A stretch of DNA of 64,000 nucleotides from Tsukamurella spumae (GTDB lineage: Bacteria > Actinomycetota > Actinomycetes > Mycobacteriales > Mycobacteriaceae). The first letter of the stretch is position 1. Each line of letters begins with the position of its first letter. Shown here one piece after another: positions 346 through 64,000 of the stretch. The notes under the pieces are model-generated. The model saw only the letters and a list, made by a program, of their open reading frames with translations. It was not told the DNA's origin and made no database searches. The DNA is taken from the NCBI RefSeq assembly GCF_012396015.1, contig NZ_JAAXOQ010000016.1, positions 1-64,000 of the forward strand, in the 5' to 3' direction. The position numbers were made by a program, and so were the translations under genes.

Positions 346-2379
346 TCATGGAGTCAGACCACGCCACTCGAGCAGGGGCGCGATATCGGGATCGCCGCCG
401 CGGAAGTCGCGGTAGGCCTGCGAGGCGTCGACGCTGCCGCCGCGGGAGAGCACTGCGGCGCGCAGCTTCTCGCCGTTCTCCCGCGTCGGGCCGTCGTGCG
501 CGGTGAACCAGGCGGCGGCATCGGCGTCGAGCACCTCGGACCAGATGTAGCTGTAGTACCCGGCGCTGTAGCCACCCGAGAAGATGTGGTTGAAGAACGG
601 GCCGCGGTAGCGGGGCGGCACGCCGGGCACGTCGAGCCCGGCGTCGGCGAGGGCCGCCGCCTCGAAGGCCTCGACATCGGCGACGACGGTGCCCGGCTCG
701 ATCGTGTGCCACGCCAGGTCGATGACGGCCGCGGCGAGGTACTCGACGGTGCCGAATCCCTCACCGCGCGTCCCGGGCTCGAGCACCGAGCGGCGAAGCC
801 CCTCGGGCAGCGGCTCCCCCGTCGCGTGATGCCGGGCGTAGCCGTCGAGGATCGAAGGCCACGCGGCGAACATCTCGTTGAACTGCGAGGGGAACTCGAC
901 GAAGTCGCGCGGCACGCTCGTCCCCGAGAAGTACGGATAGGTCACCTCCGAGAGCAGGCCGTGCAGGGCGTGCCCGAACTCGTGGAAGACGGTGGTCACC
1001 TCGTCGCGGCTGAGCAGCGCGGGCCGCCCGTCCGGCGGGCGGACGACGTTGCAGACGTTGATGATCACCGGCTGCGCATCGAGCAGGCGCGGCTGGTCCA
1101 CGAAGCTCGTCATCCACGCTCCGCCCCGCTTGCTGGGGCGGGCGAAGTAGTCCCCGATGAACAGGCCGAGCGGCGCACCGTCGGGCCCCGTGACCTGCCA
1201 CGCGCGCGCGTCCGGGTGGTGCAGCCCGAGATCCGTGCGCTCGACGAAGCCCAACCCGTACATCCGGGAGGCGGCCTCGAAGACGCCCTTCTCGATCACG
1301 TTGTCGAGCGCCAGGTACTCGTTCAGCGCGGGTCCGGATCCGCCCTCGTCGGCCCCGGCCCGCTGCTCGGCGATGCGCGCGTAGAAGGGCCAGTCCCAGG
1401 CCTCGATCCCGTGGTCCGCAATCTCTTCCAGCTCGGCGCGCTCGGCGGTGGCATTGCGCGCGGCGGGCACGGCCAGGTCGCGCAGCATGCCGAGGGCAGC
1501 CTCCGCCGTGCCGGCGGTCTGGTCGGCGATCTGGTACGCCGCGTGGTGCGGGTACCCGAACAACGCCGCGCGCTCGGCCCGCAGGCCGGCGATGCGGGTG
1601 ATGAGTTCGCGGGTGTCGTTCTCGCCTCCCCGCGCGTTGCGGCCCGACGACGCCTCGTACACCCTGCGCCGCGACGCACGGCTGGTCAGGCGCGCGAGGT
1701 TCGGCTGGTTCAGCGGGTAGCCGAGGGCCAGGAGGTACCCGTCCTGCCCCGCCGCCTCGGCGGCGGCGCGGGCCCCGGCGATCGCGTCGGCGCCCAGCCC
1801 GTCGAGCTCGGCCTCGGTCGCGAAATGCACTGCGGAGGCGTTCGTCTCGGCGAGGGTACGGCGCGAGAACTCGGTGGTGAGCTCGGCGAGCTCGGTGTTG
1901 ATGACCCGCAGCCGCTCCTGGGCGGCACCGTCGAGCCCGGCCCCCGCGCGGGTGAACCGGAGGTGGTAGCGCTCGAGCAGCCGAAGCTGCTCGGGGTCGA
2001 GGCCCAATTCGCCGCGCCGGGAGTGCAGCGCGTCCACCCGGCCGAAGAGCGCCGCGTCCATGAGGATGGCGTCGAAGTGCGCCGACCACAGCGGCGAGAC
2101 CGCGGCCTGCGCGGCTTCCAACGCATCCGTGCGGTCGGTGGAGGTCAGCGAGAAGAACACGGCCGCAACGCGCCCGAGGTCCTGCCCCGCGCGCTCCATC
2201 GCCTCGACGGTGTTGGCGAACGTGGCGGGCTCGGCAGCGCCGGCGATCGCCGCGATCTCCCGACGATGCCGGGCGAACCCCTCGGCGAAGGCCGCCTCGA
2301 AGTCCGTGTCCGCGAACGCGGCGAAGTCCGGCAGGGCGAAGGGCAGGGTGCTGGGGGCGAGAACGGCATCGACGGTCAC
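346..2379 (-). CDS. dcp: peptidyl-dipeptidase, M3 family (Dcp-like)
   Basis: This 677-residue protein is close to the usual length of peptidyl-dipeptidase Dcp, a cytosolic zinc peptidase that removes dipeptides from the C-terminus of oligopeptides. The zinc site HEFGH is at residues 466-470, with the third ligand probably E495 in the FVEFPSQFNE segment. The Tyr-rich substrate-binding segment near the C-terminus (NHIFSGGYSAGYYSYIWSE) is also present. The start is GTG at 2379; the N-terminus lacks a signal peptide, which fits a cytoplasmic enzyme. It stands alone, with the pentapeptide gene ending 33 bases upstream on the same strand. M3A oligopeptidase is the alternative name; Dcp fits best by length and motifs. 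Confidence 0.9.
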   Translation of the reverse strand: MTVDAVLAPSTLPFALPDFAAFADTDFEAAFAEGFARHRREIAAIAGAAEPATFANTVEAMERAGQDLGRVAAVFFSLTSTDRTDALEAAQAAVSPLWSAHFDAILMDAALFGRVDALHSRRGELGLDPEQLRLLERYHLRFTRAGAGLDGAAQERLRVINTELAELTTEFSRRTLAETNASAVHFATEAELDGLGADAIAGARAAAEAAGQDGYLLALGYPLNQPNLARLTSRASRRRVYEASSGRNARGGENDTRELITRIAGLRAERAALFGYPHHAAYQIADQTAGTAEAALGMLRDLAVPAARNATAERAELEEIADHGIEAWDWPFYARIAEQRAGADEGGSGPALNEYLALDNVIEKGVFEAASRMYGLGFVERTDLGLHHPDARAWQVTGPDGAPLGLFIGDYFARPSKRGGAWMTSFVDQPRLLDAQPVIINVCNVVRPPDGRPALLSRDEVTTVFHEFGHALHGLLSEVTYPYFSGTSVPRDFVEFPSQFNEMFAAWPSILDGYARHHATGEPLPEGLRRSVLEPGTRGEGFGTVEYLAAAVIDLAWHTIEPGTVVADVEAFEAAALADAGLDVPGVPPRYRGPFFNHIFSGGYSAGYYSYIWSEVLDADAAAWFTAHDGPTRENGEKLRAAVLSRGGSVDASQAYRDFRGGDPDIAPLLEWRGLTP

Positions 2380-4073: not shown

Positions 4074-5189
4074 GTGGCCGTATCTGTGGACCCCGAGATC
4101 CGCCGTCTCCGCGCCCTCCGGCTCCGCGCGCAGGGTCTGGTGCCCGGTGTGCGGGACTGGCGCACAGCGCAGGACGCCGCGCGCGGGATGCTCGCGATCC
4201 AGGCGCAGGACGGCGCGGCGGCCCGGTTCGCCCTCTCCCTGCGCGCCGCGGATCGTCCCTCCGACGCCGCCGTCCTCGCCGATCTCGCGGAGCGGCGCCT
4301 CGTCCGGAACCGCCCGGCTCGCGGGACCCTCCAGATCACTGCGCCCGACGACGTGCACTGGCTCAGTGCCGCGCTCACCGAGCGTTCGCGGGCCGAGGCG
4401 GCCAAACGGCGTCCGGCACTCGGGCTCTCGGACGCCATGGTCGACGGTGCCGAGCGGACCATCCGCGCGGAGCTGGCGGGCGGAAGAGTTCTCACGCGTC
4501 CACAGCTCGTGGAGGCGTGCGCGCAGAACGGGGTCGTCCTCGACAACGGTCAGGCGGGGCACGTGCTGCGGCACCTCACCGAGCTCATGGCGATCGTGTT
4601 CGCCGATCCGGCCTCGAAGACCGATGCCTTCGCCCTGGCCGACGAGTGGGTCGCGGAACGCCGGGAGCCGGATCACGCACTGGGAGAGATGGTCTCGCGG
4701 TTCGTCACCGCCCGCGGTCCGGTGACCCGGCAGGACATCGGCAAGTGGGCCTACCTGCCGATGGGATCCGTCGACGAGGGCCTCGCCGCCGCGGGCCCCG
4801 CCGTCGGCACCGTCGAGCTGGCGGGCACCACTTACCTGGTCGCGCCCGGCACCGTCGACATCACCGATGCGGAGGTCGACGAGGCGCTCGCCGAGCCCCT
4901 TCTCCTCCCCGGCTTCGACGAGTACATCATCGGATACGGTTCCCGCGCACCGCAGCTCGACGAGCGGTATCTGGCGCGGATCATCCCCGGCCGCAACGGG
5001 GTCTTCAAGCCGATGATCGTCGTCGACGGCGAGATCGTGGGCATCTGGAGCCGCAAGGCCACGGCGAAGAAGGTCACCGTCGCGCTGGAGCCCTTCACCT
5101 CGCTCACCGCTGCCGCGAAGCGACGACTCGCCGGGCCGGTGCGCGATTACGGGCGGTTCCTCGGGCTCAAGGCGCAGCTAGCGCCGTAG
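4074..5189 (+). CDS. winged-helix DNA-binding protein, AlkZ/YcaQ (HTH_42) family
   Basis: This 371-residue protein has the HTH_42 architecture: three tandem winged-helix units. Family members AlkZ and YcaQ are DNA glycosylases that unhook interstrand crosslinks, using a QxQ or QxD catalytic pair. Here Q43-A-Q45 (LAIQAQDG) sits at the expected position near the N-terminus. Other family marks are RGTLQITAPDDVHWL and LLPGFDEYIIGYGSR. The GTG at 4074 gives the natural N-terminus MAVSVDPEIRRLRALRLR; the frame is open upstream over the opposite gene but encodes nothing plausible there. Glycosylase activity is inferred from the family, since most actinobacterial homologues are untested. Confidence 0.8.
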   Translation: MAVSVDPEIRRLRALRLRAQGLVPGVRDWRTAQDAARGMLAIQAQDGAAARFALSLRAADRPSDAAVLADLAERRLVRNRPARGTLQITAPDDVHWLSAALTERSRAEAAKRRPALGLSDAMVDGAERTIRAELAGGRVLTRPQLVEACAQNGVVLDNGQAGHVLRHLTELMAIVFADPASKTDAFALADEWVAERREPDHALGEMVSRFVTARGPVTRQDIGKWAYLPMGSVDEGLAAAGPAVGTVELAGTTYLVAPGTVDITDAEVDEALAEPLLLPGFDEYIIGYGSRAPQLDERYLARIIPGRNGVFKPMIVVDGEIVGIWSRKATAKKVTVALEPFTSLTAAAKRRLAGPVRDYGRFLGLKAQLAP

Positions 5190-5200
5190 GCCGGAACGAC

Positions 5201-5668: not shown

Positions 5669-5724
5669 GGCCCGCGCCCCTTTCGTCGTGACCACGAGCA
5701 TACCACCTTGCGAGGATTAGCCGC

Positions 5725-5785
5725 GTGTGCAACTATCTATCTCGTTGTGTGTGCAACTACTGCAGACGCTGGTGATTGCAGACGC
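5725..5785. promoter_or_regulatory. probable MarR operator region with direct and inverted repeats
   Basis: GTGTGCAACTA occurs twice, at 5725-5735 and 5749-5759, 24 bases apart. The second copy forms an inverted repeat GTTG-N6-CAAC at 5744-5757. A second direct repeat, TGCAGACGC, follows at 5761-5769 and 5777-5785. The site lies between the divergent marR and MFS starts, so binding could repress both. Seen in sequence; the binding protein is inferred. Confidence 0.6.
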
Positions 5786-5816
5786 GCCAATTATCCCGAC
5801 TCCCTAAGGAACCCTC

Positions 5817-7007: not shown

Positions 7008-7045
7008 GAACCGACCCCTGACCATCCCCACACGGCGATGATCTA

Positions 7046-17058: not shown

Positions 17059-17673
17059 ATGGCGAACGACTTCACCCGCTTCGCGGCCGTGGCGGCCAAG
17101 CTCGCGCGCGAGCACGGCCCACGGCTCGCGGCGCAGGTCGTGAACAGCCCTCCCGTGCGGGCGGGCCGGGAGGCGATCACCCAGGTGGTCACCCAGACGG
17201 TGAACCAGGCGCTCGGCCTCGAGGCACCGTCGGAGCCCAAGGAGTTCACCCCCGGACGCCCCGTGACCCGCACCTCGACCCGGACCGAACTGATGGCCCG
17301 GTCGGTGGTGTACGCACCCCAACTGGACGGGCGCGCCGATCCGGGCGAGGTCGTCTGGACCTGGGTCGAGTTCGAGGAGACGACGGGGCCCAACGCCGGT
17401 CAGGGCAAGGACCGGCCCGTGCTCGTCGTGGGCCGCTCCGGGGTCGTCCTGCTCGGCCTGATGCTCTCCAGTCAGGACAAGCACATGGGCGATCCGGACT
17501 GGGTCGGCATCGGTTCCGGCCCGTGGGACGAGGACCGTCGCCCCTCGTGGGTGCGCCTCGACCGGGTCCTCGACGTGCCGGAGGACGGGATCCGGCGCGA
17601 GGGCGCCGTCCTGGACCGGCGCCGCTTCGAATCCGTCGCCCAGCGCCTGCGCAACGACTACGGCTGGTCCTGA
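17059..17673 (+). CDS. PemK/MazF-like toxin-fold protein
   Basis: This 204-residue protein has a helical N-terminal half of about 70 residues followed by a PemK/MazF-like beta-barrel: VVWTWVEFEE, then KDRPVLVVGRSGVVLLGLMLSS, then DPDWVGIGSGPWD. MazF-fold toxins cleave mRNA and normally pair with a small antitoxin. No antitoxin ORF lies beside it here, and the long N-terminal extension is unusual. Chromosomal actinobacterial homologues of this size may be housekeeping rather than toxic. The ATG at 17059 is the only good start. It converges with the UvrA-like gene, 7 bases away. Confidence 0.7.
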   Translation: MANDFTRFAAVAAKLAREHGPRLAAQVVNSPPVRAGREAITQVVTQTVNQALGLEAPSEPKEFTPGRPVTRTSTRTELMARSVVYAPQLDGRADPGEVVWTWVEFEETTGPNAGQGKDRPVLVVGRSGVVLLGLMLSSQDKHMGDPDWVGIGSGPWDEDRRPSWVRLDRVLDVPEDGIRREGAVLDRRRFESVAQRLRNDYGWS

Positions 17674-17680: not shown

Positions 17681-18367
17681 TCATCGCGCGCGACCGGACC
17701 GCGCGAGGTGCGCCCGCAGGAACCGGCCGGTCACGCTGTCCGGGGTCGCCGCGATCCGCTCGGGCGTCCCCTGGGCGACGACGGTGCCGCCCGCGGCCCC
17801 GCCGCCCGGGCCCAGGTCGATGACGTGGTCGGCGTTGGCGATCATGTCCAGGTCGTGTTCGACGACGATGACCGTCGCGCCGCGGTCGACGAGTCGCTGC
17901 AGCACGTCCAGCAGGACCCGGACGTCCTTCGGGTGCAGGCCCACTGAGGGCTCGTCGAGCACGAAGACCGCGTCGGACTGATCGCGCCCCAGCTCACCCG
18001 CGAGCTTGAGCCGCTGCGCCTCGCCGCCCGACAGCGCGGGGGTGGCCTCGCCGAGCGTGAGGTAGCCCAGGCCGAGATCGACGAGGGTGCGCAACTTCGT
18101 GGCGATCCGCGGCACCGGCACGAGCTCGGCGGCCTCGCGGACGCTGCGCGCCAGCAGATCCGGGAGGGCGAGGCCGGCACCGTCGCCGCCCTCGGGCCAG
18201 CGGACCGCCGAGGCCTCGGGGGCGTACCGTCGGCCCAGGCACACCGGGCACTCGATGTCGACGTCGGGGAGGAACTGGACGTCGAGCGAGACCTGCCCCG
18301 TGCCCTCGCACCGCGGGCAGCGCAGCGATCCCGTGTTGTAGGAGAAGGCACCGGCTTTCAGGCTCAT
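17681..18367 (-). CDS. UvrA-like ATPase, C-terminal part (half of NBD2)
   Basis: This 228-residue ORF begins MSLKAGAFSYNTGSLRC and contains the UvrA zinc-module cysteines (CPRCEGTG, CPVCLGRR), the ABC signature LSGGEAQRLKLA and Walker B VFVLDEPSVGLHP. The Walker A of the same ATPase domain is in the upstream ORF, so neither ORF alone has a complete NBD2. Its ATG lies inside the upstream stop region (ATGA overlap). Placed end to end, the spacing across the junction equals that in E. coli UvrA, which supports a single ancestral protein. The product could form by reinitiation, by -1 frameshifting, or the gene could be freshly broken. Confidence 0.8.
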   Translation of the reverse strand: MSLKAGAFSYNTGSLRCPRCEGTGQVSLDVQFLPDVDIECPVCLGRRYAPEASAVRWPEGGDGAGLALPDLLARSVREAAELVPVPRIATKLRTLVDLGLGYLTLGEATPALSGGEAQRLKLAGELGRDQSDAVFVLDEPSVGLHPKDVRVLLDVLQRLVDRGATVIVVEHDLDMIANADHVIDLGPGGGAAGGTVVAQGTPERIAATPDSVTGRFLRAHLARSGRAR

Positions 18368-26770: not shown

Positions 26771-26773
26771 CCC

Positions 26774-27679: not shown

Positions 27680-27742
27680 GCGACGAAGGTAGGCCGGAGG
27701 CACCGTCGGAAAGCCCGTCGGAACCCCGAGAATCGGCCCGCC

Positions 27743-41744: not shown

Positions 41745-43330
<1,586 letters not shown>

Positions 43331-46497: not shown

Positions 46498-47283
46498 GTG
46501 ACCGACTCCTTGGTCCACTATGAGACGCACGGCGGCGCCGCGTATCTCACGATCGACAGCCCGCACAACCGCAACGCGATCTCGCAGCGCCTGCTCGCCG
46601 ATCTGCGTGCGGGGCTCCAGCGGGCGGCCGCCGACGACGCCGCGCGCGCGGTGGTGCTCACCCACACCGGCACGACCTTCTGCGCCGGTGCGGATCTCAA
46701 GGAGGCGGCGGCGAACGGGGCCGGGACGGATCCGAGGTCGCGCACGCTGGCGATGATCGGCGCCATGCGCGGCATCGTCGAGTGCCCGAAGCCGGTGATC
46801 GCCCAGGTCGACGGGCACGTGCGCGCCGGCGGCTTCGGCCTCATCGGGTCCTGTGATTTCGTGTTCGCCGGCCCGGCGGCCTCGTTCGCCGTGACGGAGA
46901 CCCGCATCGGGGTGGCGCCGGCGATGGTCTCGCTGGTGCTGCTGCCGCATCTGCCCTCCCGGGTCGCGTCCGCCCTCCTGCTCACGGGCCGGAGCTTCGA
47001 CGGTGCGCAGGCCGCCGAGTACGGGCTGATCACCGCCGCCGTCGACGATCCCGCGGCGGCCGTCGCGGACCAGCTGGCCGAGCTGCAGTTGTGCAGCCCG
47101 CAGGGCCTGCGGGAGACGAAGCAGATCCTGTGGCACGACGTCCTGCGCTCGTTCGACGAGCGGGCCGAGTCGCTCGGCGAGCAGTCGGCGCGGCTGTTCG
47201 GGTCGGCGGAATCGGTCGAGGGGATCACCGCGTTCCTGCAGAAGCGCGCGCCGAGCTGGGCCGAACCGGCACCGTCGGCATAG
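46498..47283 (+). CDS. enoyl-CoA hydratase/isomerase family protein
   Basis: This 261-residue crotonase has the oxyanion-hole segments CAGADLKEA and DGHVRAGGFGLIGSCD. Of the two catalytic Glu residues of standard hydratases, the first is replaced (AGGFGL for GGGCEL); the second is kept in VTETRIG. It may hydrate a branched 2-enoyl-CoA such as a methylglutaconyl-type product, but the loss of one acid leaves the reaction open. GTG at 46498 follows GGAG. Confidence 0.83.
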   Translation: MTDSLVHYETHGGAAYLTIDSPHNRNAISQRLLADLRAGLQRAAADDAARAVVLTHTGTTFCAGADLKEAAANGAGTDPRSRTLAMIGAMRGIVECPKPVIAQVDGHVRAGGFGLIGSCDFVFAGPAASFAVTETRIGVAPAMVSLVLLPHLPSRVASALLLTGRSFDGAQAAEYGLITAAVDDPAAAVADQLAELQLCSPQGLRETKQILWHDVLRSFDERAESLGEQSARLFGSAESVEGITAFLQKRAPSWAEPAPSA

Positions 47284-47926: not shown

Positions 47927-50290
47927 CTAGGCCTTGTCGAGGTAGTCGCCGCGCTCGCCGCCGAGGACCACCTCGTTCATCGCCCGCAGCGCGGGATGGC
48001 GCTCCAGTTCCGGATCCTCGCCCACGATCTCGTAGGCGAGGTCCCGCGCCGCGGCGAGCACGTCCCCGTCGGTCGCGAGGTCCAGGAAGCTCAGGCGCCG
48101 CGCGAGCCCGGACTGGTCGACGCCGAGGATGTCGCCGAAGCCGCGGTACTCCAGGTCGAGCTGGGCGAGGGCGAAGCCGTCGACGGTGTCGGCCACCGCG
48201 TTCAGCCGCCCCAGCGTGCGCTCGGATCCGCTGGCGGTGATGAGCAGGCACAGCCCGGGCAGGCCGCCGCGGCCCACCCGGCCGCGCAGCTGGTGCAGCT
48301 GGCTGATGCCGAACCGATCGGCGTCGCGGACCACCATCGTGGTCGCGTTCGCCACATCGACGCCGACCTCGATCACGGTGGTTGCCACCAGGATGTCGAT
48401 CTCGCCCACGGCGAAGGCGGCCATGATCTCGGCCTTCTCCTCGGCGGGCAACCGTCCGTGCAGCAGCGCGATCCGGTGCTCGCCGAGCGGCCCGGCGGCC
48501 AATTCGTCGTACATCTCGATCGCCGACACGGTCTTCTGCTTCGCGTCCTCGTCCTCGGCGGGCTCGGCGCGGGAGGCGCCCCGACCGCCGGACTTCGGGG
48601 CGGGTTCGGCGACGCGGTCGAAATCGTAGTCCTCGTCGGTGAAACCGGCCTTGGCCTGTTCCCCTGTCGCGTCGTCGCCGATGCGGGGACACACCACGTA
48701 GACCTGACGCCCGGCGCGGACCTCCTCGTCGACGCGGGCCCACGCCCGAGCGACCCACGCCTCCCGGTCCGCCGGGACCACGGAGGTCTGGATCGGCTGC
48801 CGCCCGCGCGGCAGCTCGCGCAGCACGGAGGTGGCCATGTCGCCGAACTGCGCCAGCGCGACGGTGCGCGGGATCGGCGTCGCCGTCATCACCAGCAGGT
48901 GCGGCATCGTCTCGTCGGGCGTGTCCGCGTCGGAGGTTCCGGTGCCCCTGCGCCGCAACCGGTCCCGCTGCTCCACGCCGAACCGGTGCTGCTCGTCGAC
49001 CACCACCAGGCCGAGCCGGAAGAACTCGACCGTGTCCTCCAACAGCGCGTGGGTGCCGATGACGATCCCCGCCTCGCCGGTCACGATGCGCAGCAGCGCC
49101 GCCCGCCGCTGCTTGACCGTCATGGATCCCGTCAGGAGCGTCACCGTGGTGGCGGCGTCGGCCGCGCCCAGCTGTCCCGCCTCGGCGAGGTCGCCCAGCA
49201 TCTTCGAGATCGAGAGCAGGTGCTGCGTGGCGAGCACCTCCGTCGGCGCCAGCAGCACCGCCTGATACCCCGCGTCGACGGCGGCGAGCATCGCCAACAA
49301 CGCCACGAGCGTCTTGCCCGAGCCCACCTCGCCCTGCAGCAGTCGGGTCATCGGATGGTCACGCGCCAGGTCCGCGAGGATCTCGGCGAGCACCTCCTCC
49401 TGACCGTCGGTGAGCGAGAAGGGCAGTCGCTCGCGCAGCCCGACCTGGAGCGGACCGTCGGGCGCGTGCAGCGGCGGGGAGGCGACGGTGCCCACGTCGT
49501 GCGCCCGGCGGGCCAGGGCCGTCTCGATCGCGACGGCCTCGTCGAACGCGAGCCGGCGCTTCGCCTCCTCCGACTGCGCGCGCCCGTCGGGCTTGTGCGC
49601 CGCGCGCACCGCGTCGTCCAGGCTCATCAGACCGTGCTGCGCGAGGAACGCCGTCGGCAGCGACTCCGGCACGGGTGCGAGCCTCTTGAGCACCGCGTCG
49701 ACGAGCGAGAGGATCAGCCACGTGGGCATGTTCTTGGTGCCGTGGTAGATCGGCACGGTCGGCTGCATCAACAGGCTCAGGTCCGCGAACTTGAGCCGCT
49801 TGGAACCGGCCTTGGTCGAGCCCGCCTCGTTGGCGGCGAGCGCCTCCGCCGAGGTGATCGTCGTGTCCGGCAGCACGAGCCACTCCGGGTGCGTCAGCTG
49901 CAGCTTGCCGTTGAACTCGCCGAGCCTGCCGATCAGCAGCAGCTGGCGGTCGGGCTGGATCGGCTTGGGCAGGTAGTTGAAGAAGGTCACGTCGTAGGCG
50001 CGGACCTTGTTGACCACCTGCACCTTGAACATCTTCTTGCCGCGGTGATGCGCCCGGGGCGGCGTGATGGCGGTGACGGTGCCGATGACCACCACGTCGT
50101 CGCCGATCCGGGGCTCGGAGCGCCGCGTACCGTCGTCCTCGACGGCCCCGCCCTCGTACCGGAACGGGAAGTGCCGCAGCAGATCCCCGACCGTGTCCAA
50201 GCCGAGCTCCGCGGTGACCAGCTCGGCGATCTCGGGATCGAGCGCCTGCGCCAGCGGCGTCTGCAGGGTCAGGTCGCGCGCAGCGGTCAT
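47927..50290 (-). CDS. recG: ATP-dependent DNA helicase RecG
   Basis: This 787-residue superfamily 2 helicase has an N-terminal wedge/OB domain, then Walker A LQGEVGSGKTLVAL, the DEQH box VVVDEQHRFGVEQR, motif III VMTATPIPRTVAL and motif VI QLRGRVGRGG. It remodels stalled forks and Holliday junctions. An acidic Lys/Asp/Glu insertion (EPAEDEDAKQKT region) sits in the second helicase lobe. It overlaps the DAK2 gene by four bases (ATGA). Matches Rv2973c. Confidence 0.96.
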   Translation of the reverse strand: MTAARDLTLQTPLAQALDPEIAELVTAELGLDTVGDLLRHFPFRYEGGAVEDDGTRRSEPRIGDDVVVIGTVTAITPPRAHHRGKKMFKVQVVNKVRAYDVTFFNYLPKPIQPDRQLLLIGRLGEFNGKLQLTHPEWLVLPDTTITSAEALAANEAGSTKAGSKRLKFADLSLLMQPTVPIYHGTKNMPTWLILSLVDAVLKRLAPVPESLPTAFLAQHGLMSLDDAVRAAHKPDGRAQSEEAKRRLAFDEAVAIETALARRAHDVGTVASPPLHAPDGPLQVGLRERLPFSLTDGQEEVLAEILADLARDHPMTRLLQGEVGSGKTLVALLAMLAAVDAGYQAVLLAPTEVLATQHLLSISKMLGDLAEAGQLGAADAATTVTLLTGSMTVKQRRAALLRIVTGEAGIVIGTHALLEDTVEFFRLGLVVVDEQHRFGVEQRDRLRRRGTGTSDADTPDETMPHLLVMTATPIPRTVALAQFGDMATSVLRELPRGRQPIQTSVVPADREAWVARAWARVDEEVRAGRQVYVVCPRIGDDATGEQAKAGFTDEDYDFDRVAEPAPKSGGRGASRAEPAEDEDAKQKTVSAIEMYDELAAGPLGEHRIALLHGRLPAEEKAEIMAAFAVGEIDILVATTVIEVGVDVANATTMVVRDADRFGISQLHQLRGRVGRGGLPGLCLLITASGSERTLGRLNAVADTVDGFALAQLDLEYRGFGDILGVDQSGLARRLSFLDLATDGDVLAAARDLAYEIVGEDPELERHPALRAMNEVVLGGERGDYLDKA

Positions 50291-51945
50291 TCGACGCCGA
50301 TCTCCATCACGCTGGCGGTCTGCCCGCCGCGGTAGCCCACCACCTCGACCTCGGGCCGGTCCGGACGCAGCGCCGCGCTCACCCGATCGGGGAAGTCGCC
50401 GTCGCCCGCATCGCCGAGCAGCACCGTGACCATGTCGCCGCCCGTTGCGAGCAGCAGCTCCGCGAGCGCCTCTCCGGCGGAGTACTGATCCTCCTCGAGC
50501 ACCACCACCTCGCCGCCGACCATGCCCAGGTAGTCGCCGGGACCGCAGGGACCGAGGATCGTCAGGGCGTCCTCGGTGACCGCCACGACGGCGCCGCAGC
50601 GCGCCCCGGCCGCCGCCTCCGCCATCGAGTAGGTGTCATCGGCGGCGTGTCCCGCGGGCTCGTGCACCGCGAGCGCCGCGATCGCCTGCACCATCGACGA
50701 GGTGGGCAGCAGCGTGACGAGCACCCCCGACTCGCGGGACCGGGCGGCGACCGCCAGCAGTTCCGGCGTCGGCAGGGCGCCGTTGGGCATGAGCAGGACC
50801 TCGCGGCCCTCGAAGCGGTGCAGCGCGGCGAGCAACTCCGCGTGCGTCATGCCCTGATCGCAGCGGATCACCTCGGCCCCCGCGCCCGCGAACAGCTCCG
50901 CCGCACCGTCGCCGGAGACGAGGGCGACGATGGCCCGGGGCGCGTCCAACAGCGCCTGCAGCGGCGTCTCGGCCTGTCCCGCCTCCTGGAGGACGTTGAC
51001 GGCGATGCTGCGCAGCTTGCCGTGCCGCAGGCCGGTCTGGATCGCGGCGCCGGGCTCGGTGGTGTGCGTGTGGACCGACCAGGTGGCCACCGGATCCGGA
51101 TCCGCCGCCGCGACCACGACGACGGAGTCGCCGAAGGCCTGCAGTTCCGCCCGCAATCGATTCGCCGTGGCCTCGGTCGCGTCGGGCAGCAGGTACATCA
51201 CCTCGTAGTCCGCGTGCGGGCCGCGCGGCGGATCCTCGCCGTGGTGATGCGCGTGCCCGTCGCCCTCGCCGACGTGCACGTGCGGTGCGGTCCGCCGGTT
51301 GAACCGCGGGCGCTCGGGCGCGGCGCCGGCCGTCACCTCGACGAGCGCGTCGAGCAGCACCAGTAGCCCCCGGCCGCCGGCGTCGACGACCCCCGCGGCG
51401 GCGTTGTCGGCCAGCTGATCGCGGGTGCGCAGCAGCGCGTCGAACGCGGCGTCCGCGGCGCCCCGCGCGCAGCCGGCCAGGTCCGCCCCGCCCGCCAGGG
51501 CGGCCCCGGCACCGTCGGCCCCCGCCCGCAGGACGGAGAGGATGGTGCCCTCGATCGGGTCGGCGACGGCCGTCGTCACGAGGTCGGTGCCCCGGCGCAG
51601 GCCGGTCGCGAACCCCTCCGCCGTGAGGTCCGCGTCGGGGCCGAGCTGCCCCGCCAGCCCGCGCATGATCTGGGAGACGATGACGCCCGAGTTGCCGCGG
51701 GCGCCGGCGACCGCGCCGGCCACCGTGGCCCGGGCCACCGCGTGCGGCCCCTCCGTGCGGTCCGCCTCCTCCGCCGCGCGCGCCGCGGCACGGAGGGTGA
51801 CCAGCATGTTCGTCCCCGTGTCGGCATCGGCGACGGGGAACACGTTCAGCGCATTGATCTCGTCCACGGCGCGTTCCAGGCCGAGGACCGCGCGCTGGAG
51901 CCACGCGACCACCACGCGCCCGTCCGCCACCATCGGTCCCGTCAC
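50287..51945 (-). CDS. DAK2 (FakA-like) kinase-domain protein
   Basis: This 552-residue protein has an N-terminal DhaL-type ATP-binding domain (NVFPVADADTGTNML, RGNSGVIVSQIMRGLA), a His-rich linker (HVHVGEGDGHAHHHG) and a C-terminal DegV-partner-like half. FakA-type kinases phosphorylate fatty acids bound to DegV proteins; a DegV gene lies at 27806. In actinobacteria this gene is constantly paired with recG (Rv2974c). The loop reads ADADTG where FakA has PDGDTG, so kinase activity is likely but not proven. Confidence 0.85.
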   Translation of the reverse strand: MTGPMVADGRVVVAWLQRAVLGLERAVDEINALNVFPVADADTGTNMLVTLRAAARAAEEADRTEGPHAVARATVAGAVAGARGNSGVIVSQIMRGLAGQLGPDADLTAEGFATGLRRGTDLVTTAVADPIEGTILSVLRAGADGAGAALAGGADLAGCARGAADAAFDALLRTRDQLADNAAAGVVDAGGRGLLVLLDALVEVTAGAAPERPRFNRRTAPHVHVGEGDGHAHHHGEDPPRGPHADYEVMYLLPDATEATANRLRAELQAFGDSVVVVAAADPDPVATWSVHTHTTEPGAAIQTGLRHGKLRSIAVNVLQEAGQAETPLQALLDAPRAIVALVSGDGAAELFAGAGAEVIRCDQGMTHAELLAALHRFEGREVLLMPNGALPTPELLAVAARSRESGVLVTLLPTSSMVQAIAALAVHEPAGHAADDTYSMAEAAAGARCGAVVAVTEDALTILGPCGPGDYLGMVGGEVVVLEEDQYSAGEALAELLLATGGDMVTVLLGDAGDGDFPDRVSAALRPDRPEVEVVGYRGGQTASVMEIGVE

Positions 51946-54110: not shown

Positions 54111-54704
54111 GTGAGCGATGCAGACGACACGACCACCGAGGGCGCGCAGGACCCGACCCCACGTACGCGCAGGAGCCCGGCCTTCCTCGCCACCGCCGTG
54201 GCCCTGCCGGTGGCGGTCCTGGCCTGCTTCATCACCTTCCTGATCCTGGCGCAGAACAAGCAGGGCGACGCCCGCGACGCCGCGGAGGCCGGGCACCTGA
54301 AGTCGATCGCGGCACCGTCGTCGGGCGACGCGGCGTGCGGCGCGCTGCTCGGCGCGCTCCCGGCCGATCTCGACGGCTTCCGGCGCACCGACGCCACGGA
54401 TCCCAGCGGATTCGCCCGCTGGACCAAGGACACGGCGGGCGCCGTCGAGCTGCGCTGCGGCACGGACCGGCCCGCAGAGCTGACCCCGACGGCGAAACTG
54501 CAGATCATCAACGGTGTGCAGTGGCTGCAGGCCGTCCCCGCGGGCGCGCCCGCCCCCGATGGGGGCGCCTACTGGACCGCCGTCGACCACCGCCCGTATG
54601 TCACGCTCTGGGTGCCCGACGGTGCCGGGACCTCGGCCGTGCAGGCGACCTCGGACGCGATCCGCGCGCACCTGGGGCAGGCGTCACTCGATCTCGGGAA
54701 GTGA
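54111..54704 (+). CDS. DUF3515 membrane-anchored protein
   Basis: This 197-residue protein has an N-terminal membrane anchor (FLATAVALPVAVLACFITFLIL, about 25-46) and an extracytoplasmic DUF3515 domain with two Cys (DAACGALL, ELRCGTD) that could form a disulfide. It matches Rv2980 in order. Function is unknown in all species I know of. The GTG at 54111 is the only reasonable start. Confidence 0.87.
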   Translation: MSDADDTTTEGAQDPTPRTRRSPAFLATAVALPVAVLACFITFLILAQNKQGDARDAAEAGHLKSIAAPSSGDAACGALLGALPADLDGFRRTDATDPSGFARWTKDTAGAVELRCGTDRPAELTPTAKLQIINGVQWLQAVPAGAPAPDGGAYWTAVDHRPYVTLWVPDGAGTSAVQATSDAIRAHLGQASLDLGK

Positions 54705-54733: not shown

Positions 54734-55819
54734 TCAGCGCAGGCCCGTGCCGCGGGCGAGCGCGGTATCGATGAGCACGGTCAGCAGCTCGGCGTAGTCC
54801 ACGCCCGACTCGGCCCACATCCGCGGGTACATCGACGTCGAGGTGAAGCCCGGCATCGTGTTGACCTCGTTGATGACCGGGCCGTCGGCGGTCTGGAAGA
54901 AGTCGACGCGGGACAGGCCCTGGCAGTCGAAGGCGTGGAAGGCGCGCACCGCGAGGTCGCGGATCACCGCCGCCTGCTCCTCCGGGAGGTTCGCGGGCAC
55001 CGTGTACTGCGCGCGGTCGTCGAGGTACTTGGTCTCGAAGTCGTAGAACGAGTGCTCGGCGTCGGCCGCCATTTCGATCTCCGCGATGGCGGACGCTGCG
55101 GCGCTGCCGTCCGGCCGTTCGAGCACCCCGATCTCCACCTCACGGCCGATCACCGCGGCCTCGATGATCACCTTCGGATCCCACTTCCGGGCCTCGGCAA
55201 TCGCGGCGGGCAGCTCGGTCAGATCGGTGACCCGGGTGATGCCGATCGACGACCCGCCGCGCGCGGGCTTGACGAAGAGCGGCAGTCCCAGGCGGTGCAG
55301 CACGTCCGAGGGGACCTCGGTCTCGCGCTGACGGAGCACGTGGAAGTCGCCGACCGGCAGTCCGTCGGCCGCGAGCAGCTTCTTCGCGAACTCCTTGTCC
55401 ATGCCCGCCGCGGAGGCGAGGACGCCGGCGCCCACATAGGGCACGCCGACCATCTCCAGCAGCCCCTGCAGGGTGCCGTCCTCGCCGTAGGGGCCGTGCA
55501 GCACGGGGAAGACGACATCGACGGTGCCCAGGAGCTCACCCGCGCTATCGGCGTGCACCGAGACGAGCTCCGCGCCGGGCAACAGCGCCAGGTCGGTGGG
55601 ACCGTCCGCCACGCTCGGGAGCGCGCGATCGGAGAACCGCAGGGCCTGCGCGTCGCCGTCGGAGAGCACCCACGCGCCGGCACGGGTGATACCGACGGGG
55701 ATCACCTGGTAGCGCTCGGGATCGAGGTGCGCGAGGATGCTGCCCGCCGACACGCACGAGACCGCATGCTCACTGCTGCGCCCGCCGAACACCACTGCCA
55801 CCCTGATTCGCTCCGTCAC
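54734..55819 (-). CDS. ddl: D-alanine--D-alanine ligase
   Basis: This 361-residue ATP-grasp enzyme makes the D-Ala-D-Ala end of peptidoglycan precursors. It has [13 protein letters not shown] at the N-terminus, [19 protein letters not shown] and the metal-binding [20 protein letters not shown]. The GTG at 55819 follows TAAGGT by 8 bases. Matches Rv2981c. It converges with DUF3515. Confidence 0.96.
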
Positions 55820-56927: not shown

Positions 56928-57032
56928 CGCACCCCAACTCCTCGCATCGCGCCAGCACCCACACCGGCGGACGTGGGCATCGCAGGAGAGCGTATCGCCC
57001 GACCAAGCGCGGCACCGTCGGTTCCACACGCC

Positions 57033-57045: not shown

Positions 57046-57747
57046 ATGACCGCACTCCGCGGCGCCGACGCGCCCCCTGCCGTGGTGGTGGTGACCGCCG
57101 TGAAGTCCCTCGACACCGCGAAGACCCGGTTCGCCGCGCCCGGCGGGGGCCGGCGGGAGGCGGTTCCCGGGCTCGTCCTGGCGATGCTCCGCGACACGCT
57201 GGCCGCGGCGCGCGCCGTGCCCGCGGTCGCCGCCGTCCACGTCGTGTCGCCCGATCCCGTGGTCCGCGCGGCCGCCGCCGAGGCGGGGGCGTACGCCCTC
57301 GACGAGCCGCGGCCGGGCGGGCTCAACGCCGCACTCGCCGCGGGGGCGGCCGCCGCGGTCGCCCGGTACGACGGTGCCGTGGCCGTGCTCGCGCTGCAGG
57401 CGGACCTGCCCGGCATCACCGCCGGTGAGCTGGGCGCGTTCCTCGCCGCGGCGGACGGCCGCCGCGCGTTCGTGCCGGATCACGCGGGAACCGGCACCGC
57501 CGCGCTGTACGCGCCCGCGGGCACGCCGCTGCGCCCGGCGTTCGGTGTCGATTCGGCTGCGGCGCACCGGGCCGGGGGCGCCGTCGCACATGCCGGGCCC
57601 TGGCCCGGTCTGCGCACCGACGTGGACACCCCGGAGGATCTCGCCGGCGCGCTCGTGGTGGGCGAGCACACCGCGGCGGCGCTCGCCGCGGCCGATCCGG
57701 ACATCGCGTCGAACTCGTGCGGTCCATGCGCCAGAATGGAGCGGTGA
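57046..57747 (+). CDS. fbiD: phosphoenolpyruvate guanylyltransferase (FbiD/CofC)
   Basis: This 233-residue nucleotidyltransferase activates phosphoenolpyruvate for coenzyme F420 synthesis (Rv2983). Marks are [27 protein letters not shown] (metal-binding Asp), and the C-terminal [12 protein letters not shown]. Its presence implies an F420-making organism. The stop overlaps the ppk start (GTGA). Confidence 0.9.
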
Positions 57748-59936: not shown

Positions 59937-60886
59937 CCGGCAAGGGCGACGGGGCCGTCGTCCGCGCCGCCGGGGGTGTGCTGTGGCGGCACGGCCCCGA
60001 CGGTGCCGAGGTCGCCGTGGTGCACCGGCCCCGCTACGACGACTGGTCGCTCCCCAAGGGCCATGTCGAACCCGACGAGAACTGCGTCGTGGGCGGACTG
60101 CGCGAGGTGGTCGAGGAGACCGGCTTCTCGGCGCGCTTCGTCCGTCGGATCGGCCAGGTGTCCTACGACGTGCCGCGGCGCGGCCGGCACGGTCCGGGCG
60201 GAGCGACGGCGCGCAAGCGCGTGTCCTACTGGTCGGCGCTCGCCGGGTCCGGCGAGTTCGCACCGAACGAGGAGACGGACGAGCTGCGCTGGCTCTCCGT
60301 GAAGGCCGGCACCGCACTGCTGACCTACCCGATGGACAAGCGGATCCTGCGCGCCTTCGGCAAGCAACCCGATTCGACGGCGACGATGCTGATCGTCCGG
60401 CACGCCAAGGCCGGACGGAAACAGGGCTACCAGGGCGACGACCTCGCGCGCCCGCTCGACGGGAACGGCCGGGCCCAGGCCGAGGCGCTCGTGGATCTCC
60501 TGAGCGCCTTCGGCCCGGGCCGGCTGCTCTCCGCTCCCCCGGTGCGGTGCACGCAGACCCTCGAGCCCCTGGCGGCCGAGACCGGCCTTCCCCTCGCCCT
60601 GGAGCCGACGGTGTCGGAGACCGCGTACGCGCGCGATCCCGTGGCCGCGCACCGTCGGATCCGCGAGATCGCACGGGCCGGTGAGGAATCGGGCACCGTG
60701 CCGGTCGTGTGCAGTCAGGGCGGGGTCATCCCGGAGCTCACCGCGTGGTGGGCCGGGGCCGACGGTGTCCGGCTGCCGCCCGCGCGCAACCGCAAGGCGA
60801 GCGTCTGGGTGCTGACCACGTCGGGCGGCCGCCTGCTGACCATGGACCACATCGACAGTCCGCTGCCACTACACGCGAATACGTAG
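59933..60886 (+). CDS. mutT1: MutT1-type Nudix hydrolase with histidine-phosphatase domain
   Basis: This 317-residue protein joins an N-terminal Nudix domain (Nudix box from GHVEPDE through REVVEETGF) to a C-terminal histidine phosphatase ([13 protein letters not shown]). In mycobacteria (Rv2985) it clears 8-oxo-dGTP/GTP. GTG at 59933 overlaps the ppk stop. Its 3' end overlaps the convergent lipoprotein gene by 18 bases. Confidence 0.93.
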
Positions 60887-61565: not shown

Positions 61566-64000
61566 CTAGGAGAACTCTTGGAGCCGGTTGCGCGCGGCCC
61601 GCGCCCACACCTCGTTCCCGCAGCGCTCCGCCAGTTGCACCGCCGCGCGGTAGTGATCGGCGGCGCGCTCCGATCCGCCGAGTCGCGCCGCGAGATCGCC
61701 GAGGACCGTGTCGACGGGGCCGACCACGTAACAGCCCGTGTCTGCACCGCCGAGTTCGCCGCGGTAGCGCAGGAGTTCGTCGTAGACGTCGGCCACCTCG
61801 TCCTGGCCGCCGATCGCCGCGACCGCGATGCCCCGCGTGGTCAGCAGCAGGGAGTGGAAGAAGTCCCGCCGCACCGGGCGAACCGCGCGCCGCACCCGCA
61901 CCGCCTCGGATCGCCGACCCGCCGACAGCAGCGCCAGTGCGACCGGATCGCACAGGACGTCCCCCGCGGACGAGTCGATCGCTCCGAGGACCTCCACGAA
62001 CTCCGCGACGTCCCCCAGTGAGAGCCGGACGCTGAACTGCGCGAGCGCGATCATCCCCGCGCCGTCCGCGATCCGCTGGCGGGCGAACACGTCGCCCGCC
62101 TCCCGGTAGTGCTCCGCCGCCTCGGCGAAGCGTCCGCCCGCATGCGCGAGCATCGCGTGGATCAACAGGTCGGAGGCGATCGCCTGCCCCCAGCGGAACA
62201 TGCCCACCAGCCGGTCCATCTCCTCGAGGTGAGCCCGCGCCTCGTCCAACGCCCCCACTGCACCCGCGGCCTGCACGTGCGTGAAATGCCCGATGAGCCC
62301 GAACACCTCGCGATTGGCCGACTCCCCGAGGCCGATCAGCTCGTCCGCCAGTTCGGCCCGTTCCGCGGGCGGGGTGAGGGGGCGCGGAAGGGTCAGATAG
62401 GCCACCAGCGCCAGTCCGCGCACGAGCGGATCACCCACCGCCGCGGACAGTTCGAGCACCTCCCGCGCCGCCTCGGTCGCGACCTCGTCCTGCTCGCCGT
62501 ACACCTCCTCGATCAGGACGACGAGGAGGCGGCATCGCACGTCCGGGGGCAGTTCAGCCTGCTCGAGCCGCTCGCGCACCGCATCGACGATCTCCGTGTC
62601 GACGGAGCCGTACCGGCGGGTGATCAACGGCGTCGGCAGGTCCCATGCGGTGATCGCGGCATCGAGCATCTCCGTGTCGGAGCCCCGCGCGAGCCGCACC
62701 GCCCGCAGCCGCGTCTCGCGGGCCTCCTCGAGCCGCCCGTCCGCGAGCAGTGTCCGGCTGAGCCTGCACAGGTGGGCGATCCGGTCCCGGTCGGCGTACC
62801 CCGGGATCCGGAGGTACGCGCGCTCCGCGGCGCGCAGATTCTCCGCGGCGATGTCATGGGCGAACCCCGCGTCCGCGAGATCGGCGGCGGCGAGCGCGTA
62901 TCGCAGTGCCTCGGCGGCGTTGTCGGCGCCGAGGGCGGCACCGAGGTGGTGGGCGATGGCCGCCACCGCCGAGGGCTCGACCTCCTCCAACGCCCGGGCG
63001 ATCCGACGGTGCCACCGCACCCTGCGCAGGCGCGGTAGGTCCGCGATGAGGGTGTCCCGCACCAGCACATGGGTGAAGCTCACCGTGGTCGCGTCCACCT
63101 CCAACAGGCCCGCGAGCTGGCCGGCGTCGAGACCGTCGAACACGACCTCCTCCTCCACCTCCGCCGCCCGGACGAGCACGTCGAGATCCGCCGTGCGGCC
63201 GACCAGGGCTGCGAGCCGGAGCACGGAGACCGCGACATCGGGCAGACGCATCAGGCGCCGGCGCAGCACGTCCCGCACGCCGGCGGGGACCGCCGAGAGC
63301 GCGACGAGCTCGCCCTCGCTGCGCAGCAGGCGCGCGCTCTCCTTGAGATGGAAGGGATTTCCCCCCGTCCGCTCGAGCAGCCGTCGCATCGTGTCGGGCG
63401 ACGGTGCCGTGTGCGCGAACTCGGCGACGAGCGCGGTGGCGTCGTCGAGGGCGAGGCCCGGCAGCCGGAGTCGGAGCGGGTGCCCAACGGCGAGGGACCC
63501 GAGCGCGATCTCGAGGTGACGGCCGACCTCGTCGGGGCGGTACGCACCGACCACCAGGACGGGAACCGCCGCCGCGACCTCGATCAGGAGGTTGAGGGTC
63601 TCGGACTCCGCGCGGTGCAGGTCGTCGAGGAGGATCGCGACGGGTCCCCTCGCCGCGGCCGTGCACAGGGCGTCGACGACGTCCTGGTGGAGGAGGAACC
63701 GCGACATCTCGGCGGACTGCTCCGCGCCCGTCGGCCCCGCCGGCTCGGCCCCCGCGAGCCGGTCGACGAGCGCACGACAGCGGCCCTCCTCGCCGCGTTC
63801 CCCCAGGGCCCCGAGCACCTGGCTCCACGCCCATGCCGGAGGAGCGCCCTCGGCCTCGGGGCAACGGCCCGTGACCACCTCCCAGCCGCGGGCCCGGAGG
63901 ACGCGCGCGACATGTCCCAGGAGCGCTGACTTCCCGTCTCCCGCCTCCCCGGTGACCAGACACAGCCCGGGCTCGCGTGCGGTGCGGACGGTCTCGGCCG
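61566..64000 (-). CDS. large AAA-ATPase/TPR transcriptional-regulator-like protein, 5' end missing
   Basis: The frame is open to the window edge and carries at least 811 residues. It has Walker A TGEAGDGKSALL about 20 codons from the edge, Walker B AILLDDLHRAESE, an AAA_16-type domain, then about 500 residues of TPR-like helices. No HTH is at the C-terminus, so a DNA-binding (for example SARP/BTAD) domain, if present, would be at the unseen N-terminus. It is likely a STAND-type sensor-regulator. The start cannot be given. Confidence 0.8.
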   Translation of the reverse strand, partial: AETVRTAREPGLCLVTGEAGDGKSALLGHVARVLRARGWEVVTGRCPEAEGAPPAWAWSQVLGALGERGEEGRCRALVDRLAGAEPAGPTGAEQSAEMSRFLLHQDVVDALCTAAARGPVAILLDDLHRAESETLNLLIEVAAAVPVLVVGAYRPDEVGRHLEIALGSLAVGHPLRLRLPGLALDDATALVAEFAHTAPSPDTMRRLLERTGGNPFHLKESARLLRSEGELVALSAVPAGVRDVLRRRLMRLPDVAVSVLRLAALVGRTADLDVLVRAAEVEEEVVFDGLDAGQLAGLLEVDATTVSFTHVLVRDTLIADLPRLRRVRWHRRIARALEEVEPSAVAAIAHHLGAALGADNAAEALRYALAAADLADAGFAHDIAAENLRAAERAYLRIPGYADRDRIAHLCRLSRTLLADGRLEEARETRLRAVRLARGSDTEMLDAAITAWDLPTPLITRRYGSVDTEIVDAVRERLEQAELPPDVRCRLLVVLIEEVYGEQDEVATEAAREVLELSAAVGDPLVRGLALVAYLTLPRPLTPPAERAELADELIGLGESANREVFGLIGHFTHVQAAGAVGALDEARAHLEEMDRLVGMFRWGQAIASDLLIHAMLAHAGGRFAEAAEHYREAGDVFARQRIADGAGMIALAQFSVRLSLGDVAEFVEVLGAIDSSAGDVLCDPVALALLSAGRRSEAVRVRRAVRPVRRDFFHSLLLTTRGIAVAAIGGQDEVADVYDELLRYRGELGGADTGCYVVGPVDTVLGDLAARLGGSERAADHYRAAVQLAERCGNEVWARAARNRLQEFS

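What the first reader, a model, noticed from the sequence alone, without database searches (positions are those of the whole stretch)
684..63407. A highly iterated non-palindromic motif, GGCACCGTCG, about every 1.3 kb
I counted about 50 copies of GCACCGTCG/CGACGGTGC. At about 70% GC a 9-mer of this composition is expected roughly twice in 64 kb on both strands, so it is enriched more than twentyfold. Codon bias does not explain it: copies fall in different frames and force less-favoured codons (GGT in GAC-GGT-GCC, GCA in GCA-CCG-TCG) where the genome prefers GGC and GCC. Copies also sit in intergenic DNA (27700, 57012, 61548). This looks like a HIP1-like or uptake/segregation-type genomic signature that I do not know to be described for this group.
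Basis: partly seen in the sequence, partly recalled or inferred. Interest (0 to 1): 0.8.

Follow-up and report, generated by a model that had tools for sequence, protein, structure and literature searches.

The report
Actinomycete genus-wide DNA uptake-like word
Tsukamurella bacteria carry a 10-letter DNA word hundreds to thousands of times across their chromosomes but hardly ever in their integrated mobile elements, much like the labels that some other bacteria use to recognise DNA of their own kind when taking it up; if confirmed it would be the first such label I know of in this phylum.

Summary
GGCACCGTCG occurs 37 times in the window (expected 1.0-1.7) and 1793 times in the genome, a Tsukamurella. 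Sixteen species of the genus hold 360-2346 copies; 149 other genomes of the order hold 14-409. Codon use does not explain it (161 coding copies in 364 kb against 21 after synonymous shuffling), and intergenic DNA is enriched too. Positions 3 and 6-9 are strict; one-mismatch forms are enriched 2.6-fold. Sampled copies show no replication-strand polarity (153 leading, 176 lagging), unlike Chi or KOPS; the word is non-palindromic, unlike HIP1. Six mobile elements in five genomes hold 1 copy in 151 kb, their flanks 122 in 349 kb. Best explanation (0.58): a DNA-uptake-type signal, accumulated by biased uptake and recombination, probably through the Tad/Flp pilus with ComEA and ComEC (both comE genes lie in the window). 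In 7 of 15 resolved species the Tad genes are split, with inserted DNA proven in all five followed across, as elements elsewhere split comYC, comFA, comK and comM. Uptake and the reader protein are inferred. Copy number does not track the state of the pilus genes. I found no description in the open-access papers searched.

The parts
684..693 (-). GGCACCGTCG copy 1
744..753 (-). copy 2
1924..1933 (+). copy 3
4442..4451 (-). copy 4
4806..4815 (+). copy 5
4848..4857 (+). copy 6
17223..17232 (+). copy 7
17779..17788 (-). copy 8
18176..18185 (+). copy 9
18801..18810 (-). copy 10
19197..19206 (-). copy 11
19609..19618 (+). copy 12
19699..19708 (+). copy 13
22360..22369 (+). copy 14; same word in 11 of the 13 relatives aligned at this site
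23580..23589 (-). copy 15
27699..27708 (+). copy 16, outside called genes, just upstream of comEA
28223..28232 (+). copy 17
28825..28834 (+). copy 18
29828..29837 (-). copy 19
32420..32429 (+). copy 20
39641..39650 (+). copy 21
40053..40062 (+). copy 22
40124..40133 (+). copy 23, inverted pair with copy 24, two bases apart, inside a gene
40136..40145 (-). copy 24
42539..42548 (+). copy 25
44144..44153 (+). copy 26
47268..47277 (+). copy 27
49483..49492 (-). copy 28
51508..51517 (+). copy 29
54311..54320 (+). copy 30
54617..54626 (-). copy 31
55519..55528 (-). copy 32
57011..57020 (+). copy 33, outside called genes
57369..57378 (-). copy 34
59998..60007 (-). copy 35
63004..63013 (-). copy 36
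63399..63408 (-). copy 37
25187..26770 (-). comEC (DNA import channel family, PF03772), candidate part of the uptake machine; no copy of the 10-mer inside
   Evidence: ortholog annotated ComEC/Rec2
26774..27679 (-). comEA (SLBB + helix-hairpin-helix DNA-binding protein), candidate part of the uptake machine; no copy of the 10-mer inside
   Evidence: ortholog annotated ComEA

Best explanation
GGCACCGTCG (strict part C3 and C6-G7-T8-C9, softer flanks) is a DNA-uptake-type signal of the genus Tsukamurella. A sequence-specific reader on or near the DNA-uptake machine, most likely the Tad/Flp pilus feeding ComEA and ComEC, prefers fragments that carry the word. Such fragments recombine into the chromosome more often, so point mutations that create the word, or come nearer to it, spread and accumulate by molecular drive in resident DNA, on both strands, in several reading frames and between genes. 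DNA that arrives by other routes (integrated elements) lacks it. Shown: overrepresentation, genus restriction, mismatch gradient, absence of polarity in samples of two genomes, near absence from six integrated elements, presence of comEA, comEC and a Tad locus, a split Tad locus in 7 of 15 resolved species.
For: Genus restriction: 16 Tsukamurella genomes 360-2346 copies, 149 other genomes of the order 14-409. Coding copies 161 against 21.0 (sd 3.5) in 100 synonymous shuffles. Intergenic 13 against 0.56 expected in G000. Mismatch ladder 18.9, 2.6, 1.2, 1.05 for 0-3 mismatches and position-specific tolerance, like the gradient described for uptake words in PMC1939737 (abstract and passages). No polarity: 153 leading, 176 lagging in 43 stretches of two genomes. 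Six mobile elements in five genomes: 1 copy in 150.8 kb, 46.0 expected at genome density; flanks 122 in 349.2 kb. Three further 20-kb stretches without the word hold integrase, resolvase, transposase or FtsK-type genes. Orthologous sites: the word is kept more often than control 10-mers in 10 of 15 relatives (for example 23 of 28 against 0.50 in G155, 13 of 23 against 0.26 in G151). Machine: comEA and comEC in the window; Tad locus with TadA, TadB, TadC, Flp. In Micrococcus luteus, an actinomycete, tad genes are required for transformation (PMC4322843 and PMC6370729, passages). The Tad locus is split (tadA codon 334, or flp) in 7 of 15 resolved species, with both halves found on either side of inserted DNA in 5 of 5 checked, as elements elsewhere insert in comYC, comFA, comK, comM (PMC4774983, passages).
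Against: No paper held joins Tsukamurella with 'natural transformation' (0 papers). comEC and the Flp-like pilin are also in relatives without the word, so machinery alone does not explain genus restriction. Classical type IV pilins (PF07963) were found in 1 of 16 Tsukamurella (G161) and Flp_Fap pilins (PF04964) in 0 of 16, so no counterpart of ComP is identified. Copy number does not differ between 8 species with a whole and 7 with a split Tad locus (rank test p = 0.34); split ones keep up to 1886 copies. The tadA insertion lies at the end of the ATPase domain (Pfam match to residue 337), so TadA may stay active. Phage TPA2 has 6 copies against 1.1 expected and its CACCGTC count is 2.9 times expectation, against 1.2-1.7 in seven outside relatives. 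The siderophore part of plasmid pTpau01 is rich in the word. G161 (360 copies) lies within the range of outside genomes. In 5 of 15 relatives the window sites are kept no more often than controls, in G163 1 of 29 against 0.16.
Confidence: 0.58

Rival explanations
1. A Chi-like recombination hotspot: the word regulates RecBCD (or AdnAB) and is selected genome-wide to save broken chromosomes.
For: RecC (PF04257) found in 16 of 16 Tsukamurella genomes and in only 2 of 15 others examined. Chi words are also rarer in newly acquired genes (PMC8022716, passages).
Against: No leading-strand polarity: 153 against 176, 95% interval 0.41-0.52 for the leading share; Chi in E. coli is almost only on the leading strand (PMC8022716). 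The 10-base length and 19-fold excess are beyond usual Chi words (recalled). Of the two other RecC-bearing relatives, G165 shows 2 copies against 1.1 expected in 60 kb and G003 145 copies in 5.0 Mb; they could use other words.
Confidence: 0.12
2. A binding or modification site of a chromosome-wide DNA-binding protein or methyltransferase (nucleoid architecture or epigenetic mark, HIP1-like), kept by selection for its presence.
For: Near-random scatter along the chromosome (gap CV 1.05 in 280 kb of C1, 1.33 in the window), strict core with soft flanks, near absence from integrated elements.
Against: Non-palindromic and 10 bases long; HIP words are palindromes matched to methyltransferases (PMC4390886, abstract and passages). 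No polar pattern seen. Methylation and binding could not be tested; methyltransferase genes were not searched for.
Confidence: 0.15
3. A biased mutation or repair process that creates the word in any DNA replicated in the cell.
For: Both strands, coding and intergenic; some excess in phages TPA2 (6 against 1.1 expected) and TIN2 (2 against 0.3).
Against: 1 copy in 150.8 kb of integrated elements; amino-acid changes are carried along: DGA, GTV and APS tripeptides 1.9-2.1 times expectation from amino-acid frequencies, against 0.93-1.39 for eight permuted tripeptides.
Confidence: 0.08
4. Codon-pair or tripeptide preference.
For: Three registers hold 147 of 161 coding copies. Such words exist: in relative G074 the dispersed word CGTCGAGCAG (15 copies) sits 13 times in one register and synonymous shuffling still gives 4.1.
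Against: Synonymous shuffles give 21 of 161; rare codons GGT and GCA are forced; intergenic copies; genus restriction.
Confidence: 0.02

Closest known systems
DNA uptake sequence (DUS) of Neisseriaceae
   Same: 10-base non-palindromic word, lineage-restricted, thousands of copies (2245-4549 in passages of PMC3630211), strict core with softer flanks.
   Different: Different sequence and phylum; no ComP-type pilin found; uptake not shown; genome about 70% G+C; the pilus candidate is Tad/Flp.
Uptake signal sequence (USS) of Pasteurellaceae
   Same: Short word, mismatch gradient explained by molecular drive (PMC1939737).
   Different: USS has AT-rich flanking segments; none seen here beyond the codon rhythm in 554 pooled sites.
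Flp pilus-dependent natural transformation of Micrococcus luteus
   Same: tad locus plus comEA/comEC, in an actinomycete.
   Different: The phrase 'uptake sequence' is absent from the two M. luteus papers searched; uptake by Tsukamurella is unknown.
Chi sites
   Same: Non-palindromic, overrepresented in resident DNA, poorer in acquired DNA.
   Different: No strand polarity here.
HIP1 of cyanobacteria
   Same: Lineage-wide highly iterated short word.
   Different: HIP1 is palindromic and tied to methyltransferases.

Membership tests
DNA uptake sequence / USS | Short non-palindromic word far above expectation on both strands | tested here: met
   905/888 copies in G000, reversed control 12/12
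DNA uptake sequence / USS | Graded excess of near-matches, strict core | tested here: met
   ratios 18.9, 2.6, 1.2, 1.05; positions 3 and 6-9 strict
DNA uptake sequence / USS | Poor in newly acquired DNA | tested here: met
   1 in 150.8 kb of six elements against 122 in 349.2 kb of flanks; two phages show a small excess
DNA uptake sequence / USS | Naturally competent host with uptake biased to the word | not testable with these tools
   needs an uptake experiment; no paper found
DNA uptake sequence / USS | Type IV pilin receptor (ComP or minor pilin) | tested here: not met
   PF07963 in 1 of 16 Tsukamurella genomes (G161), 0 in G000; a Tad-type receptor is possible but not identified. So it is not filed as a member, only as working like one
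Flp/Tad plus ComEA/ComEC uptake machine | tadA-tadB-tadC-flp-tadE cluster and comEA-comEC | tested here: met
   whole in G000; split in 7 of 15 resolved Tsukamurella
Chi | Polarised on the leading strand | tested here: not met
   153 leading, 176 lagging
Chi | RecBCD or AddAB present | tested here: met
   RecC in 16 of 16
KOPS / segregation signals | Orientation switches at origin and terminus | tested here: not met
HIP1 | Palindrome | tested here: not met
   GGCACCGTCG is not its own reverse complement
HIP1 | Matching methyltransferase | not tested
   no search made

The most novel reading that the evidence does not exclude
An actinomycete genus has evolved its own DNA-uptake language read by a Tad/Flp pilus machine, independently of Neisseriaceae and Pasteurellaceae, and its mobile elements fight back by repeatedly inserting into the pilus genes tadA and flp; some species may be losing the word after losing the pilus.
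Probability: 0.45. Interest if true: 0.9.

Novelty: new variant of a known kind. Interest (0 to 1): 0.77.

Why it matters
Uptake words are known to me only from two proteobacterial families (recalled). A third, independent case in a high-GC Gram-positive genus, with a different pilus, would show that self-recognition of DNA evolves repeatedly, would point to natural transformation in mycolic-acid bacteria, and would give a clean comparison for finding what reads such words. The repeated splitting of the pilus genes by mobile elements makes the conflict hypothesis testable in a new phylum.

Tried and rejected
Strand run: the place list seemed to show 150 kb with all copies on the + strand; reading the DNA showed it to be an artefact of the listing. 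Dialects: in samples of seven relatives of the family (20-80 kb each; one G170 stretch of three is all N) the top 10-mers of G165, G169 and G171 are local clusters and those of G067 partly a run; G074 has one dispersed word, 15 copies against 0.9, mostly in one codon register. G160 and G161 samples (12-18 kb) were too short to judge dialects. Hairpin or terminator role: of 13 adjacent pairs within 60 bases in the stretches, 6 are convergent inverted, 1 divergent and 6 same-way; all 6 convergent ones are in G000 (of 8 close pairs there), 5 of them inside one gene, but 19 stretches of G159 give 1 convergent of 9, and all adjacent pairs together are balanced (105 +-, 105 -+, 96 ++, 81 --). So not general; the G000 excess is unexplained. 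Flanking AT tracts as in USS: none. Copy number against Tad state: no significant difference. Clear att duplications at the element ends: at best a 9-base shared word (G153), 4-8 elsewhere. The 10-mer as text in papers: 66 papers, 20 listed, their titles unrelated to a genomic motif; 46 not seen.

Gene calls come from my own simple codon-usage caller; G159 is an 83% complete assembly with broken frames, so its coding/intergenic split is doubtful. Phage expectations are for the first 50 kb only. The 39-kb insert in tadA of G162 was not annotated.

Full report
WHAT IS THERE. GGCACCGTCG occurs 37 times in the 64-kb window (dinucleotide-shuffle mean 1.0, largest of 100 shuffles 4) and its 9-mer core GCACCGTCG 54 times (mean 3.9, largest 10). 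In the whole genome there are 1793 copies, 905 on one strand and 888 on the other, against 24 for the word read backwards. The genome is a Tsukamurella: the RecG protein of the window is 80-96% identical to eight named Tsukamurella loci.

GENUS RESTRICTION. The 16 genomes of the genus searched have 360-2346 copies. Among 149 other genomes drawn from the order, counts are 14-409, and in a phylum sample of 396 (own genome and some of those included) the highest other count I read is 382 (G202). In samples of seven family members outside the genus, observed/expected under an order-2 Markov model is 0.7-2.7 on counts of 1-6, against 18.3 and 11.3 in two Tsukamurella. 15 of 16 Tsukamurella exceed every other genome seen; G161 (360 copies, 5.0 Mb) does not.

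NOT CODON USE. In 364 kb of the genome, 161 copies lie in called genes, against 21.0 (sd 3.5, largest 33) after synonymous shuffling within genes; in the window alone 35 against 4.0, largest of 200 shuffles 8. They fall in registers Asp-Gly-Ala (64), Gly-Thr-Val (49), Ala-Pro-Ser (34), with 12 and 2 in two more and 0 in the sixth. Rare codons are forced: GCA-CCG-TCG is used at 47 of 88 Ala-Pro-Ser sites where codon usage predicts 0.9. The tripeptides DGA, GTV and APS are themselves 1.9-2.1 times above expectation while eight permuted ones are 0.93-1.39. Intergenic DNA is enriched as well: 13 copies against 0.56 expected in G000, 7 against 0.95 in G154, 2 against 0.15 in G155, 46 against 1.83 in G159, whose gene calls are unreliable. 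For comparison, the one dispersed word seen in an outside relative, G074, is largely a codon effect (13 of 15 in one register, shuffle mean 4.1).

SHAPE OF THE WORD. Single-base variants show which positions matter: changes at C3, C6, G7, T8 and C9 occur at 0-1.9 times expectation, whereas G1C, G2T, G2A, G10A, G10T, A4C and C5T stay 4- to 10-fold enriched. The excess falls with mismatches: 18.9, 2.6, 1.2 and 1.05 for 0, 1, 2 and 3. A paper on uptake words describes such a gradient and attributes it to molecular drive (PMC1939737, abstract and passages).

NO POLARITY. With dnaA placed by PF08299 and the terminus taken as opposite, copies in 23 stretches of G159 point 97 leading to 115 lagging, in 20 stretches of G154 56 to 61; together 153 to 176, leading share 0.41-0.52. 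Chi in E. [quoted passage not shown] An apparent strand run was a listing artefact. Spacing is near random (gap CV 1.05 and 1.33).

RESIDENT DNA ONLY. Of the Tsukamurella stretches examined, five full 20-kb ones have no copy. Two (L153, L159) lie at or in the elements below; the others (L009, L043, L051) hold integrase and resolvase, a transposase with metal-ATPase and multicopper-oxidase genes, or FtsK-type genes. In five genomes I delimited six integrated elements: 1 copy in 150.8 kb, where the genome density predicts 46.0 and Markov 2.9; the flanks on the same stretches hold 122 in 349.2 kb. In plasmid pTpau01, 2 copies lie in the first 70 kb (relaxase, IS elements) and 21 in the 25 kb of siderophore-type synthesis genes from 71.7 kb on. 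Against this pattern, phage TPA2 has 6 copies in 61 kb and TIN2 2 in 77 kb, above Markov (1.1 and 0.3 for the first 50 kb), and TPA2's CACCGTC count is 2.9 times expectation, against 1.2-1.7 in the outside relatives.

TURNOVER. At sites orthologous to window copies the word is kept more often than control 10-mers in 10 of 15 relatives: G155 23 of 28 (control 0.50), G151 13 of 23 (0.26), G164 8 of 14 (0.32), G156 4 of 8 (0.26), G159 11 of 23 (0.22), G158 8 of 19 (0.28), G152 11 of 29 (0.26), G162 8 of 21 (0.22), G150 8 of 23 (0.24), G157 2 of 8 (0.17). In five it is not: G154 2 of 8 (0.26), G153 1 of 8 (0.13), G160 0 of 4 (0.09), G161 0 of 7 (0.09), G163 1 of 29 (0.16). G163 holds 979 copies yet shares hardly any site, as expected if the word as such, not each site, is favoured.

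CANDIDATE MACHINE. comEA and comEC lie in the window (26774-27679 and 25187-26770, minus strand). comEC is found in 41 of 41 genomes searched. Classical type IV pilins are found in 1 of 16 Tsukamurella and Flp_Fap pilins in 0 of 16, but the short Flp-like DUF4244 pilin is in 15 of 16, and in 15 of 15 other genomes. Its locus in G000 has TadA, TadB, TadC, Flp and a TadE/G-like protein, and next to them a TfoX_N protein; TfoX_N lies near the locus in all 15 resolved Tsukamurella (G153 only after its far side was fetched) and not in the 20-kb stretches of two outgroups. In Micrococcus luteus the tad genes are required for transformation, and the authors note that tad with comEA/comEC occurs often in actinobacteria (PMC4322843, passages).

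SPLIT PILUS GENES. In 7 of 15 Tsukamurella genomes with a resolved locus it is split (G162's tadA break was seen): in tadA at codon 334 in G154, G157, G164, G156 and G162, and in flp at codon 13-14 in G162 and G160, or codon 33-36 in G153. In the five genomes where I fetched the far side, the missing halves lie there, behind 15.2, 29.9 and 42.8 kb (G154, G157, G164), 39.1 and 11.8 kb (G162) and 12.0 kb (G153) of inserted DNA. For G156 and G160 the far side was not fetched; G161 is unresolved. Tyrosine recombinases were found in the tadA elements of G154 and G156; those of G164 and G157 match the same module by DNA; G162's tadA insert was not annotated. The flp elements of G162 and G153 carry serine recombinases beside the break, and G153's side also a terminase; the gene next to the break in G160 is a DUF6119 gene, with an integrase-like fragment nearby. 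Mobile elements that insert into competence genes (comYC, comFA, comK, comM) have been explained as blocking transformation that would remove them (PMC4774983, passages). The same reading here would make the Tad pilus a transformation pilus. Against it: the tadA break nearly spares the ATPase domain (match 58-337), copy number does not differ by locus state (p = 0.34), and the locus may just be a tolerated integration site.

VERDICT. A real, genus-wide, non-palindromic signature, best explained by sequence-biased DNA uptake and recombination. RecC in 16 of 16 Tsukamurella against 2 of 15 others keeps a Chi-like role alive despite the missing polarity. I found no description of it: searches for Tsukamurella with natural transformation (0 papers), with competence (23 papers, 15 listed), with phage and genome (81, 15 listed), with comparative genomics, repeats and motifs (over 20,000 by three of four terms, 12 listed), for uptake sequences in actinobacteria, for uptake signals in general, for the letters of the word (66, 20 listed) and for Micrococcus with Tad pili (35, 12 listed) showed none in the listings read; a Tsukamurella phylogenomics paper has no mention of recombination, competence, transformation, uptake or repeats (PMC4955295, term search). 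Subscription papers are not held, and most listed papers were seen by title and abstract start only.

Noticed in passing
L138, L139, L141, L142, L143, L134, L130 (Tad loci of G154, G164, G157, G162, G156, G160, G153): The Tad/Flp pilus locus is an integration hotspot for different mobile elements, at one exact point of tadA and at two points of flp.
   Followed up: partly
L127 11053-11382: A TfoX_N-domain gene (TfoX/Sxy is a competence regulator in gamma-proteobacteria, recalled) sits beside the Tad locus in Tsukamurella, not in the two outgroup stretches looked at.
   Followed up: partly
window 40124-40145; C1 of G000 at 30290, 39341, 41434, 127596, 265794: Six of eight close pairs (under 60 bases) of the word in the G000 stretches are convergent inverted repeats, five inside one gene; this is not so in the other genomes sampled.
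   Followed up: partly
G000:C3:78166-79140: RecC is in all 16 Tsukamurella but only 2 of 15 other genomes of the order examined: a patchy RecBCD distribution.
   Followed up: no
L099/L100 (pTpau01): The plasmid is a chimera by motif density: 2 copies in its first 70 kb, 21 in 25 kb of siderophore-type NRPS genes.
   Followed up: partly
L076 (NZ_LR134460.1): A record labelled plasmid 18 of T. tyrosinosolvens carries lepA, rpsT, comEA-comEC and DNA polymerase III delta and looks like a piece of chromosome.
   Followed up: no
L088 5499, 19387 and L028 1696 (G163): Palindrome GGACATGTCC: three copies in 42 kb where almost none is expected.
   Followed up: no
window 4858-17222: A 12-kb gap without the 10-mer, holding lepA, betT and an IrrE-like gene, with the lowest G+C of the window (0.68 at 8-12 kb).
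   Followed up: no
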